Positions 1 through 41,125 of a stretch of DNA of 64,000 nucleotides are shown here, piece after piece. The DNA lies in the NCBI GenBank assembly GCA_024276425.1, contig JAJRXF010000095.1, positions 20,207-84,206 on the forward strand. Direction: 5' to 3'. The first letter of the stretch is position 1. Every line of letters begins with the position of its first letter. The stretch comes from Actinomycetes bacterium. GTDB lineage: Bacteria; Actinomycetota; Acidimicrobiia; Acidimicrobiales; SZUA-35. Below the pieces are notes generated by a model. The model made no database searches. It was given only the letters and a program-made list of their open reading frames with translations, and was not told where the DNA came from. Made by a program: the position numbers and the translations under genes.

Positions 1-430
1 GCTTCACGACATGAATACCCAACTCGAAACTCGCCTCGGCCCAATCCAGCCGACGTTCTGCCACAACGACCTGCTACCAGCGAACATCCTGGACGACGGC
101 TCCCGCTTGTGGCTCTTGGATTGGGAGTACGCCGGGTGGAACACCGCCATGTTCGACCTGGCCAACCTGGCGGCCAACGCCGAGTTCACTACCGGTCAGA
201 GCGACCATCTCCTCGAAGAATACTTCGGTGCGCCCCCAGACTCGCCCCAGCTCGACTCCTTCGCCGTTCTTGGCAGCGCGTCCCTACTTCGCGAGGGCCT
301 GTGGAGCCTGATCCAAGAACAACACTCCACCCTCGATTTCGACTTCGAAACCTATACCGATACACAGCTCACCCACTTGGAGGTGGCACGCCAAAACCTT
401 CAGCTGCATAGCCATCGAGAACGAACCTGA
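1..430 (+). CDS. Choline/ethanolamine kinase-like (APH family) phosphotransferase, C-terminal part, truncated by window edge
   Basis: Translation contains HNDLLPANIL...LWLLDWEYAGWNTAMFDLANLA, the catalytic HxDxxxxN and DWEYAG...DLA motifs of choline kinase/APH enzymes; reading frame is open to the window start. Confidence 0.85.
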   Translation, partial: LHDMNTQLETRLGPIQPTFCHNDLLPANILDDGSRLWLLDWEYAGWNTAMFDLANLAANAEFTTGQSDHLLEEYFGAPPDSPQLDSFAVLGSASLLREGLWSLIQEQHSTLDFDFETYTDTQLTHLEVARQNLQLHSHRERT

Positions 431-2919
431 TGCGAACAACACCCGTTCCGACTCGGGCCGAAGTGGTCATCATCGGGGGAGGAATTATCGGCTGCTCCAC
501 CGCCTTTCATCTGGCGAGAGCCGGGGTCACCGACGTGGTTTTACTGGAACGAGCCCAACTGACATCGGGGTCGACGTTCCATGCCGCAGGACTTGTTGGC
601 CAGCTACGTTCGTCTCGCAACGTCACCCAACTACTCAAGTACTCCGTCGAACTCTATGACCAACTGGAAGACCTCACCGGTCAAGCCACCGGCTGGAAAC
701 GTAACGGAGGACTCCGACTGGCTTGCACCACAGAGCGACTCATCGAGCTTCAGCGCAGCGCCACCACCGGTCGATCGTTCGGCCTCGATATCGAGATCGT
801 CTCCCCCGCCGAGGCCAATAACCTATGGCCGTTGCTCGACCCCTCCGATGTAGTAGGGGCCGCCTTCCTCCCTGGCGATGGACAGGCCAATCCCTCCGAC
901 ATCACCCAGGCACTGGCCCGAGGAGCACGCAAGGCCGGAGCTCTCATCATCGAGAACTGCAACGTGACCGGAATCGAAACCAAGGATGGTCGGGTTGCTG
1001 GTGTGGCAACCAGCGAAGGCGCTCTATCCGACGTCAACTACATTGAGTGCGAGAAAGTCGTGAACTGTGGCGGCCAATGGGCCCGCGATATTGGGGCGAT
1101 GGCCGGAGTCTCGGTTCCCCTCGTCTCCATGCAGCACCAGTACATCGTGACCGAGCAGATCGAAGACATCAACGACACTCTGCCCACCCTTCGTGATCCA
1201 GATCGACTGGTCTACTTTAAGGAAGAGGTGGGCGGCCTGGTCATGGGAGGATATGAAGCCGATCCCCTCACCTGGGGCGAAAACGGAATCCCCGCCGACT
1301 TCAACAACCGAATATTGCCGTCGGATTGGGAACACTTCGAGCCCCTATTGGCCCAGGCGGTGAAGCGAGTCCCGGCCCTGGAAACGGTCGGGATTCGCAA
1401 ACTCATTAACGGGCCGGAGAGCTTCACCCCCGATGGAAACTTCATCCTGGGTGAAGCCCCCGAGGTTCGCGGCTTTTTTGTTGGTGCAGGCTTCAACGCG
1501 TTCGGAATCGCCGCCGGTGGCGGTGCAGGTAAGGCGTTGGCCGAGTGGGTCCAGGCTGGCGAACAGCCGGTCGACCTCTGGCCGGTCGATATCCGTCGAT
1601 TCGGCAGGGTTCATCACGATGTCGACTGGGTCAGAAGTCGCACAACGGAGATGTACGCCAAGCACTACACCATGTCCTGGCCCCACGAAGAACACACCAG
1701 CGCTCGACTCATCCTGGTGTCCCCGCTCTTTGACACGCTGGTCGAGGCGGGGGCTTGTTTTGGTTCAAAGCTCGGTTGGGAGCGTCCAAACTGGTTCGCC
1801 ACTGCTGGTGAGGATCCGATCGACAAGTACTCCTTCGGTCGACAGAACTGGTTTGAGGCGGTCGGTCGAGAACACGCGGGGTGCAGGGAACGGGCCGTGT
1901 TATTTGATCAAAGTTCGTTTGCGAAGTTCTTTGTTGAGGGGCCCGACGCTGAGTCGGCACTCCAGCGGATGTGTAGCAACGATGTTGGTCGACCCCCTGG
2001 CAAGCTCACCTACACCCAACTACTCAATGATCGTGGTGGGATCGAGTGTGACCTCACGGTTTCCCGGCTGGCCGATGACCGTTTTTACATTGTCACAGGC
2101 ACCGGATTTCGAACCCGGGACCTGGACTGGATCACCGGCAGCATTCCGTCCGGATCAGACGTGGCCGTTCGGGACGTGACTGAGGATTTGGCGGTCCTGA
2201 GCCTGATGGGACCCAACGCTCGTGACGTCCTGCAGCCGGTGATCGACACCGATGTTTCCGGCCAAGCCTTCCCCTTTGGTTCGGTGGTCGAGCTAGCCGT
2301 TGCTGGTTGTCCCGTGACCGCCCTACGGGTTACCTATGTGGGTGAGCTCGGCTGGGAACTCCATGTGGACCGGGCCAACACCTCGGTGGTCTACCAAGCG
2401 TTGATGTCGGCCGGTCGAGCATTCGGTATTGCCAATGCTGGGTATCGAGCGATCGAGTCGCTGCGATTAGAGAAGGGCTATCGGGCCTGGGGCAGTGATA
2501 TCGGCCCCGACCACACGCCGATCGAGGCCGGTATGGGCTGGGCGGTCAAGCTCTCTTGCGACATCGCGTTTCGAGGCCGCAATGCCCTGGAACGCCAACG
2601 GCTCGATGGCGTGACGAAGCGACTGACCTGCTTCACCGTTGATGATCCGGAGGTGACCCTGCTTGGCCGGGAGACCATCTATCGCGATGGTGAACGGGTT
2701 GGTTGGTTGACGAGTGGTGGCTGGGGCTACACCGTGGAGACCAACATTGGGTACGGCTATGTCCGTTCTGCGGTCGCCGGAATAGGCGAACCGGTCATCG
2801 TTGACACTGACTATTTGCGCGCCGGTTCCTACGAACTGGAGGTGGCAACCCGACGAATCCCCTGCCAACTCCGACTCGGAGTCCTCTATGACCCTAAATT
2901 GGAGAAGGTCCGGTGCTAG
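430..2919 (+). CDS. FAD-dependent oxidoreductase with C-terminal GcvT/aminomethyltransferase domain (sarcosine/dimethylglycine dehydrogenase-like)
   Basis: N-terminal VVIIGGGIIGCSTAFHLA dinucleotide-binding motif, DAO-type body, C-terminal GcvT-like half (FVEGPDAESALQRMCSNDV...YVGELGWELHV). 829 aa. Confidence 0.9.
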   Translation: MRTTPVPTRAEVVIIGGGIIGCSTAFHLARAGVTDVVLLERAQLTSGSTFHAAGLVGQLRSSRNVTQLLKYSVELYDQLEDLTGQATGWKRNGGLRLACTTERLIELQRSATTGRSFGLDIEIVSPAEANNLWPLLDPSDVVGAAFLPGDGQANPSDITQALARGARKAGALIIENCNVTGIETKDGRVAGVATSEGALSDVNYIECEKVVNCGGQWARDIGAMAGVSVPLVSMQHQYIVTEQIEDINDTLPTLRDPDRLVYFKEEVGGLVMGGYEADPLTWGENGIPADFNNRILPSDWEHFEPLLAQAVKRVPALETVGIRKLINGPESFTPDGNFILGEAPEVRGFFVGAGFNAFGIAAGGGAGKALAEWVQAGEQPVDLWPVDIRRFGRVHHDVDWVRSRTTEMYAKHYTMSWPHEEHTSARLILVSPLFDTLVEAGACFGSKLGWERPNWFATAGEDPIDKYSFGRQNWFEAVGREHAGCRERAVLFDQSSFAKFFVEGPDAESALQRMCSNDVGRPPGKLTYTQLLNDRGGIECDLTVSRLADDRFYIVTGTGFRTRDLDWITGSIPSGSDVAVRDVTEDLAVLSLMGPNARDVLQPVIDTDVSGQAFPFGSVVELAVAGCPVTALRVTYVGELGWELHVDRANTSVVYQALMSAGRAFGIANAGYRAIESLRLEKGYRAWGSDIGPDHTPIEAGMGWAVKLSCDIAFRGRNALERQRLDGVTKRLTCFTVDDPEVTLLGRETIYRDGERVGWLTSGGWGYTVETNIGYGYVRSAVAGIGEPVIVDTDYLRAGSYELEVATRRIPCQLRLGVLYDPKLEKVRC

Positions 2920-38635: not shown

Positions 38636-38739
38636 AGGCTCCTAGTCAAACAAACCGAGGGATCTCCAACCTATCTGAGCAAGCCCACCCGTATCACCGT
38701 TTGAACACACTCATGGCGGCGCATTGTAAAGGGGTTTTG

Positions 38740-38903
38740 GTGCTTGACGAGACGCCAAGTCGGAGCGGCTCATGCTGTTAAGATGTCGAGTGTCCTCGTT
38801 GTGGACGACCGCTGCCAGCTTCACTTCGAGGGCGAGCACACGTCCGTCAGCACGCTCCATGATGAGGTCGATCTCATGTTCACCTCCACGAGTGCGAAGG
38901 TTC
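38740..38903 (-). pseudogene. Remnant of an AAA/DUF4143-type ATPase C-terminus
   Basis: Minus-strand frame reads ...TRGGEHEIDLIMERADGRVLALEVKLAAVVHNEDTRHLN..., the conserved nuclease-like tail of DUF4143 ATPases; no upstream AAA domain. Confidence 0.65.
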
Positions 38904-38914
38904 TGACCCTGCCA

Positions 38915-39616
38915 CTAGCCAGCGGGGATAGTCTCTGACCATGGAGTACATCCATCGCACTCAACAGTGATGCTGTAGTCACTCGGGAGGGCTTGACCAA
39001 CAAACTCCACCACGAGCCCACCCTCACCAAGCACGACCCGCCCCCACGCCGGAGATACGGATACTCTCAGCTTCTTAGAAGCGTACGTTTCGGGCAGGTA
39101 CACGTTGAGAAGAGCATAGGGTTCCCTGCCTTCCACAATTGAATCAAAGGATCCCCACTGAATCTCATCCCAATACGACTGATCGTCAGCCGGGCTACAA
39201 TCAGATCCCGCAATCAGCGCCGAACCTGACAACAACTCCTTTGGCAACTCTTCACCTTTCGCTTGAGCTGCCTCGAAGCTCATCCTCCATTCTTCGGAAT
39301 CAGCGATTGCACCATCCAGATCGAGCTCAATGGAAGTGCTGGCTGCGGTAAGCATGCAGATGTTGCGTCCGGAGTGGACCCTCCACACCGAGAACCTGGG
39401 ATCCGAGACGACGATCTCGGCATCGTTAGCTTCAGACTTTGTCAGGCCGGACAGGGTTCGCACGCCCTCGGGTATGACCGTACTAGCCCGGGTCTCTGCG
39501 ACCTGTTCAGCGCTGTTTGCGCCAGCCGAGATCTCTTGGGGCTGGGTTGGGGCACAGCCGAACAGAGCGCCGGATAACGCCGCGAACAGAACTGCTCTCG
39601 CGAGGTTATGTCTCAT
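38915..39616 (-). CDS. Hypothetical lipoprotein
   Basis: MRHNLARAVLFAALSGALFGCAP lipobox; AAGGAG SD overlaps the 3' end of the upstream gene. Confidence 0.75.
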   Translation of the reverse strand: MRHNLARAVLFAALSGALFGCAPTQPQEISAGANSAEQVAETRASTVIPEGVRTLSGLTKSEANDAEIVVSDPRFSVWRVHSGRNICMLTAASTSIELDLDGAIADSEEWRMSFEAAQAKGEELPKELLSGSALIAGSDCSPADDQSYWDEIQWGSFDSIVEGREPYALLNVYLPETYASKKLRVSVSPAWGRVVLGEGGLVVEFVGQALPSDYSITVECDGCTPWSETIPAG

Positions 39617-39617
39617 C

Positions 39618-40052
39618 CTAAAACTCCTTGTAACAAGTCACGGCAATGGTTCCAGAGACATGCCAAGACCTTTCCCAGTAGTAGCAATAGTTGTTAACCG
39701 ACACGGCATATGAATCGAGGTTTACAACCCATCCGTTGCCTGTCTTGCATTGCTTAAAGTAGGGGCTCGCCCGGTACTGGCATATCCGTCCGGTGACGAG
39801 AGAAGTCTTGCTCATCTGACCGCCTAGTGAGTCATAGCTCCATGACCACTTCTTGGCCCATGGAGCCAGCTGGCCACTGAAGTAGCTTTGAGTCGCTGCA
39901 CCTGCAGGCAAGCCCAACGTAAAAACAATCACGACAGTTAAAGCTCGAACAGTCGTTCTGAGGAATCGAGAGCCGCCCCTGCTACGAAGTCGATTGCCTT
40001 GTCCGCCTCCTTGGTCTCTGAGGCAGATTACCCCCCCCCGAAAGGTTGTCAA
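39618..40052 (-). CDS. Hypothetical small secreted protein with four Cys in the mature part; start codon uncertain
   Basis: Signal-like RTTVRALTVVIVFTLGLPAGAATQ followed by ~95 aa aromatic-rich domain (GRICQY..FKQCKTGNGW..NNYCYYWERSW..TCYKEF). Confidence 0.6.
   Translation of the reverse strand: MTTFRGGVICLRDQGGGQGNRLRSRGGSRFLRTTVRALTVVIVFTLGLPAGAATQSYFSGQLAPWAKKWSWSYDSLGGQMSKTSLVTGRICQYRASPYFKQCKTGNGWVVNLDSYAVSVNNYCYYWERSWHVSGTIAVTCYKEF
40025..40052 (-). promoter_or_regulatory. Promoter-like element with poly-G spacer: TTGACA-N7-G9-TAATCT
   Basis: Reverse strand reads TTGACA ACCTTTC GGGGGGGGG TAATCT, 16-bp spacer, followed by AAGGAGG. Confidence 0.5.
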
Positions 40053-40144
40053 GCGGGGACAGGCGACAAGAGGAACGACAGACCAGCGGAACTGAGCTAT
40101 TCTGACATCGGCGCCCTCTGCATTGGCGTTGTGAGGCCTGGCGG

Positions 40145-41125
40145 TCAGGCCGAGACGTCGATGACAACACGACCGCGGACCTTGCCCGCCAGCTGCTCCG
40201 ATGCGAGGGGGATCACTTCGTCAAGGCTGACCTCGCTGGCCATCAGCGAAAGCTTGTCCGCATCCAAATCCGTGGCCAAACGGTTCCATGCCTCAATCCG
40301 CCTGGGCTTGGGACAGTTCACACTGTCGGTCCCGGCCAGGGTGACGCTTCGAAGAATGAACGGCATCACCGTCGCTGGCAAATCAAAGCCTTGGGCCAAT
40401 CCACAGGCGGCCACGGTGCCCCCATACTTCAGCGAGGCACACACGTTGGCCAGCGTGTGGCTGCCAACAGAATCGACCGCACCGGCCCACCGTTCCTTGC
40501 CAAGGGGACGGCCCGGTTCGGATAGTTCGCTTCGATCGATGGTTCCGGCCACTCCAAGTTCGGTGAGATAGTCTGCCTCCTCGGGTCGACCGGTGGAGGC
40601 GATGACGGTGTAGCCAAGCTTGGCCAAGACGGAGATGGCAACGCTCCCAACTCCCCCAGCGGCCCCGGTAACCAGGACCTCTCCCTGGTCCGGCGTAACC
40701 CCGTTTTTCTCCAGATTCAGGACGCACAGCATGGCGGTGTAGCCCGCAGTTCCGATAGTCATTGCCTCACGAGTGGTCAACGCCTCCGGCAGGGCAACGA
40801 GCCAGTCCGCCTTGACCCTGGCCTTTTGGGCATAGCCACCCCAATGACGCTCACCTACCCCCCAGCCATTGAGAACCACCTTGTCACCAACGGCGAACTC
40901 ATCGTTGGTGCTGCTGCTTACCGTGCCGGCAAAGTCAATTCCAGGCACCATTGGGAACTCACGCACGATCGGCGAAGAGCCCGTGATGGCCATCGAGTCC
41001 TTGAAGTTGAGGGTTGAGTAGTCGATGTCAACCGAGACCTCGCCCTCTGGCAACTCAGATTCCTCGACCTCGGTCACCTCGGCTGAATAGTCTTCTTCGG
41101 TTTTAGTTACCACGATCGCCTTCAT
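40145..41125 (-). CDS. acuI: MDR-family acrylyl-CoA reductase-like oxidoreductase (AcuI/YhdH)
   Basis: [86 protein letters not shown]. Confidence 0.88.

What the first reader, a model, noticed from the sequence alone, without database searches (positions are those of the whole stretch)
39618..40060. Poly-G tract placed as spacer of a promoter-like element in front of a secreted Cys-containing protein
On the minus strand the sequence reads TTGACA-ACCTTTC-GGGGGGGGG-TAATCT: a perfect -35, a weak -10, and a 16-bp spacer of which nine bases are one G homopolymer, followed by AAGGAGG. Homopolymeric spacers are the classic architecture of phase-variable promoters (Neisseria porA/opc), where tract length sets promoter strength. 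The alternative is that translation starts at the TTG of TTGACA, which puts the G9 inside the coding frame; slippage would then switch translation. Either way the tract could control the secreted protein and the coupled lipoprotein. Caveat: no canonical start codon lies between AAGGAGG and the signal peptide, so the gene start is unresolved.
Basis: partly seen in the sequence, partly recalled or inferred. Interest (0 to 1): 0.66.

Follow-up and report, generated by a model that had tools for sequence, protein, structure and literature searches.

The report
G9 tract in a putative promoter spacer
The longest run of G in this bacterium's genome (one of only two of that length) sits between the two halves of a promoter-like sequence in front of a small secreted protein and a lipoprotein, so copying slips there could tune their expression, but no variation in its length could be shown and the gene's start codon is still unknown.

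Summary
The letters are as described: minus strand TTGACA (40052-40047), ACCTTTC, G9 (40039-40031), TAATCT (40030-40025), AAGGAGG (40012-40006). The tract is unusual. Runs of nine or more G occur twice in 3.95 Mb, against about 100 expected. The chance that a G9 falls inside a TTGACA-N15..19-TANNNT spacer is about 1e-4, though this was tested after the fact.

The downstream ORF looks real. A homologous pair (small secreted four-Cys protein, then an abutting lipoprotein gene) exists in one genome of another family (BLASTP E=2e-9). That homologue has no G tract. The genome has NucS and no MutL was found; mycobacterial NucS does not repair 1-2 base indels, so slippage is plausible.

What is missing is decisive: no second genome of the species, no reads, no RNA. 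No start codon follows AAGGAGG. The in-frame TTG start would put G9 in the coding frame with no Shine-Dalgarno upstream. The other G9 in the genome lies in a frameshifted gene and is no phase-variable partner.

Best reading: an accessory two-gene unit behind a G-spacer promoter whose strength should depend on tract length. A candidate new member of a known kind, with a precedent reported in Propionibacterium acnes. Modest interest.

The parts
40047..40052 (-). TTGACA: -35-like hexamer, or TTG start codon of the 144-aa frame
40031..40039 (-). G9 homopolymer, one of only two G runs of 9 or more in the genome
40025..40030 (-). TAATCT: -10-like hexamer fitting TANNNT, 16 bases from TTGACA
40006..40012 (-). 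AAGGAGG, Shine-Dalgarno-like but with no start codon at a suitable distance
39618..40052 (-). Small secreted protein with four Cys; signal-peptide core about 39945-39890; stop TAG 39620-39618; start unresolved (TTG 40052 is the only upstream in-frame start)
38915..39616 (-). Lipoprotein (233 aa, lipobox-like LFGC), start one base after the upstream stop, own SD AAGGAG 39629-39624
40145..41125 (-). Upstream zinc-type alcohol dehydrogenase/quinone oxidoreductase-like gene, same strand; a weak 6-bp hairpin spans its stop codon
38700..38914 (-). Probable remnant of a DUF4143-domain gene just downstream of the lipoprotein (sub-threshold match)

Best explanation
An accessory two-gene unit (a small secreted four-Cys protein translationally coupled to a lipoprotein) is transcribed from its own sigma-A-type promoter, TTGACA-16-TAATCT, whose spacer is largely one G9 tract. 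RNA polymerase would contact both hexamers best at a spacer of about 17. Slippage to G8 or G10 (spacer 15 or 17) would therefore lower or raise transcription of both genes in a graded way. Shown: the anatomy, the rarity of the tract, the homologous gene pair elsewhere, NucS present and MutL not found. Inferred: that the promoter is used, that the tract varies, and that expression follows it. The translation start lies downstream of the tract at an unidentified, probably non-canonical codon.
For: The exact hexamers at 16 bp and the position of G9 are real. Chance of such placement is about 1e-4 per tract. G runs of 9 or more are about 50-fold depleted in the genome, 2 against about 100, and are rare across the taxonomic family, 0-2 per genome in most members. 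The ORF downstream is a real gene by homology, with four Cys conserved. Codon usage in the gene frame is typical of genes from just after AAGGAGG to the signal-peptide core (0.18 per codon) and non-coding-like before it (-0.27), on only 19 and 13 codons. NucS was found and MutL was not; M. smegmatis NucS does not repair 1-2 base indels (PMC11551767). The same layout is proposed for HPT_37 in Propionibacterium acnes (PMC4746626) and established for meningococcal porA (PMC3639595).
Against: No ATG, GTG or TTG lies where AAGGAGG would place a start. The only homologous unit has no G tract and no TTGNNN-15..19-TANNNT in its upstream region. The chance estimate was made after the observation. The hairpin at the upstream gene's stop is no stronger than shuffles (z -1.24), so read-through from the dehydrogenase gene is possible.
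Confidence: 0.38

Rival explanations
1. The tract is a neutral long homopolymer in a young accessory or decaying segment. The promoter-like flanks are coincidence or an ordinary promoter, and the small gene may have lost its start codon. No switching function exists.
For: No start codon is present between AAGGAGG and the signal-peptide core. The unit is AT-rich (mature part 50.9% GC against 58.8% for the window) and absent from the same genus and from all but one of the other genomes searched. A DUF4143 gene remnant lies just downstream. The genome's other G9 sits in a gene carrying further frameshifts relative to its 79%-identical relative, which has no tract. Family G9 tracts show no common placement.
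Against: Both reading frames are intact, with signal peptide, four conserved Cys, lipobox-like sequence and stop-start coupling retained as in the distant homologous pair. Chance placement in the spacer is about 1e-4.
Confidence: 0.35
2. Translation starts at TTG 40052, the TTG of TTGACA, and the G9 lies in the coding frame. Only G6, G9 and G12 keep the frame open. G8 and G10 end it after 7 and 23 codons, so slippage is an on/off translational switch.
For: The frame is open from TTG through the signal peptide and mature part only at G9 or G12 among lengths 7-12. The homologue starts at an ATG with a similarly long Arg-rich leader of about 42 residues and also has no start codon nearer the core. 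3 of the first 8 residues after Met agree, p about 0.04.
Against: No Shine-Dalgarno upstream of the TTG (GTCCCCGC). Codon usage of the first 13 codons is non-coding-like. The N-regions of the two homologues are no more alike than shuffles (89% of shuffles score as well). TTG is also part of a full -35 hexamer with a well-spaced -10.
Confidence: 0.22

Closest known systems
Neisseria meningitidis porA promoter, poly-G between -35 and -10 (PMC3639595)
   Same: A G tract of 9-11 in the spacer of a promoter in front of an exported protein; slippage would be expected to change spacer length.
   Different: Here no length variation or expression change is known, the organism and protein are unrelated, and the host has NucS rather than MutSL repair.
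Propionibacterium (Cutibacterium) acnes HPT_37 upstream of PPA1943 (PMC4746626)
   Same: A G/C homopolymer placed between -35 and -10 in an actinobacterium, with spacer length as the proposed control.
   Different: HPT_37 is 5 or 7 C, varies between strains with a 2-fold expression difference reported, and precedes a cytoplasmic methylase; ours is G9 with no variation data.
Translational poly-G switches in coding frames, e.g. meningococcal lgtG (named in PMC3639595)
   Same: If TTG 40052 is the start, the tract lies in the reading frame and indels would switch it on or off.
   Different: Coding status of the tract is unresolved here and the evidence leans against it.

Membership tests
Spacer-tract phase-variable promoter (porA type) | Homopolymer located between -35 and -10 elements | tested here: met
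   TTGACA-ACCTTTC-G9-TAATCT, 16 bp, as sequence only; promoter activity itself is not testable here
Spacer-tract phase-variable promoter (porA type) | Tract length varies between or within populations | not testable with these tools
   Only one genome of the species is held; the gene is not found in the same genus; metagenome scans not available
Spacer-tract phase-variable promoter (porA type) | Expression depends on tract length | not testable with these tools
   Needs RNA or reporter assays
Spacer-tract phase-variable promoter (porA type) | Tract retained in homologous genes (supporting, not strictly defining) | tested here: not met
   The one homologous unit (L008) has no G run of 6 or more upstream of the gene; one distant relative only, so weak
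Translational phase-variable gene | Tract inside the reading frame | tested here: inconclusive
   Frame open from TTG 40052 at G9, but no SD, poor codon score, no N-terminal homology
Permissive repair background for mononucleotide slippage | No MutSL-type indel repair | tested here: met
   NucS_C found (E 1.4e-35); MutL domain PF01119 not found in a 96% complete genome; MutS not searched

The most novel reading that the evidence does not exclude
A contingency locus in an uncultured NucS-bearing environmental bacterium: the single G9 promoter tract switches or tunes an uncharacterised secreted four-Cys protein with a partner lipoprotein (for example a secreted effector and its surface immunity or anchor protein).
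Probability: 0.15. Interest if true: 0.5.

Novelty: new member of a known kind. Interest (0 to 1): 0.32.

Why it matters
If true, it would extend promoter-spacer phase variation from host-associated pathogens and commensals to an uncultured lineage whose repair system probably cannot fix small indels. It would also point to a rare secreted-protein/lipoprotein pair worth characterising. If not, it is an ordinary long homopolymer near an accessory gene.

Tried and rejected
(1) The genome's second G9 (contig C196, L047) at first looked like a textbook translational switch: ATG AAA AT-C9, out of frame at C9 and in frame at C10 with a signal peptide. Rejected as support, because the relative G001 (79% DNA identity) has an intact gene without the tract and the G000 copy has further gaps that break the frame, so it is decayed or poorly assembled.

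(2) N-terminal homology with L008 as proof of the TTG start: MAFFT pairs MTTFRGGVI with MNTKRATRI, but whole-region and DNA scores do not exceed shuffles.

(3) AAGGAGG as proof of a leader: 11 copies in the window, none before a long ORF.

(4) G211, G384 and other weak hits as homologues: different frames, stops or low-complexity matches.

(5) Pfam, NCBIfam, PADLOC and PDB sequence searches: no family for either protein.

(6) AlphaFold model of the mature protein: pLDDT 43, not used for a fold search.

(7) G9 tracts in relatives as a shared switching scheme: mixed contexts, none in a TTGAC-TANNNT spacer.

(8) Viral, plasmid and genome-contig searches: nothing.

Full report
Observation. It is one of three exact TTGACA-N15..19-TANNNT matches in the window, where shuffles give 0.55. 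The tract is the only homopolymer of 8 or more bases in the window.

How unusual is the tract? In the whole genome (3.95 Mb, 203 contigs) runs of at least 9 G, both strands, occur twice and of at least 8 six times. The window's first-order Markov expectation is 1.63 runs of at least 9 per 64 kb, about 100 for the genome, so long G runs are some 50-fold depleted. The same holds across the taxonomic family: most of the 36 other members searched have 0-2. A simulated G9 in Markov sequence lies wholly inside a TTGACA-N15..19-TANNNT spacer with probability 9.5e-5. This was computed after the feature was seen, so the real surprise is smaller.

What is downstream? The 144-aa frame has no Pfam, NCBIfam or PADLOC match, and neither has the lipoprotein. 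A search of 397 genomes of the order with the mature part found one convincing relative, G206 (L008): 156 aa, with a signal peptide and four Cys in the same places (BLASTP E=2e-9). Directly behind it on the same strand, abutting its stop codon, lies a 217-aa lipoprotein gene. The two lipoproteins are not detectably alike in sequence (E 0.11). So the arrangement, not just the frame, recurs, which argues that the small protein is real. It is rare: no other convincing hit came from the relatives, the order, G206's family or the class draw. The window's unit is AT-rich (mature part 50.9% GC, window 58.8%), and a probable DUF4143 remnant follows it. These are signs of accessory DNA.

Where is the start? 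In the window no ATG, GTG or TTG lies between AAGGAGG and the signal-peptide core in frame; the only upstream in-frame start is the TTG of TTGACA. With that start the G9 is coding, and of lengths 7-12 only 9 and 12 keep the frame. For this reading: the homologue also has a long Arg-rich leader (about 42 residues from an ATG) with no nearer start. Against it: no Shine-Dalgarno before the TTG, non-coding-like codon usage before AAGGAGG and gene-like usage after it (few codons), and no significant similarity between the two leaders. The point remains open.

Repair background. NucS was found and a MutL domain was not; MutS was not searched. M. smegmatis NucS does not repair 1-2 base indels, and the authors link this to homopolymer phase variation (PMC11551767). 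Slippage at G9 is therefore expected to persist. This also offers a reason for the depletion of long G runs (inference).

A lead that failed. The second G9 in the genome follows an ATG (ATGAAAAT-C9) and would be in frame at C10 with a signal peptide, which looked like a second switch. The same-genus relative has an intact 754-aa open frame without the tract, and the window genome's copy has further gaps breaking the frame. It is decayed or poorly assembled, and it shows that a G9 can arise here without any switching role. G9 tracts in the family lie in mixed contexts and none lies in a comparable spacer.

Mechanism. I judge most likely that TTGACA-16-TAATCT is the unit's promoter and that its strength depends on tract length as in porA, with G10 giving the 17-bp spacer. 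Promoter use, variation and effect are inferred. The main rival is that the tract is neutral in accessory DNA and the gene may even have lost its start. The second rival is a translational switch from TTG. Promoter-spacer tracts are known in Neisseria (PMC3639595), and one is proposed in the actinobacterium Propionibacterium acnes (HPT_37, PMC4746626), so the kind is known. The one homologous unit has no tract, which lowers but does not exclude a switching role.

Noticed in passing
window 38915-40052 and L008 838-1962: A recurring pair of a small secreted four-Cys protein and an adjoining lipoprotein, without any database family, found in only two genomes of the order among those searched.
   Followed up: partly
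window 38700-38914: Probable remnant of a DUF4143-domain gene (C-terminal end, sub-threshold Pfam match E 0.0012) between the lipoprotein and the carboxymuconolactone decarboxylase-like gene.
   Followed up: partly
L047 (own genome, contig C196), about 900-1550 minus strand: The genome's other G9/C9 tract lies next to the ATG of a secreted protein gene that carries further frameshifts relative to an intact 754-aa open frame in the same-genus genome G001 (L115).
   Followed up: yes
L099, L110, L112, L113, L097 (family genomes): A few G tracts of 12-32 bases, some next to runs of N, in draft genomes of the family; probably assembly artefacts in part.
   Followed up: no
L050 and L051 (own genome): Two G8 runs lie in frame inside conserved-looking coding genes (an aldolase-like and an Rrf2-like protein), encoding Gly-Gly stretches.
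   Followed up: no
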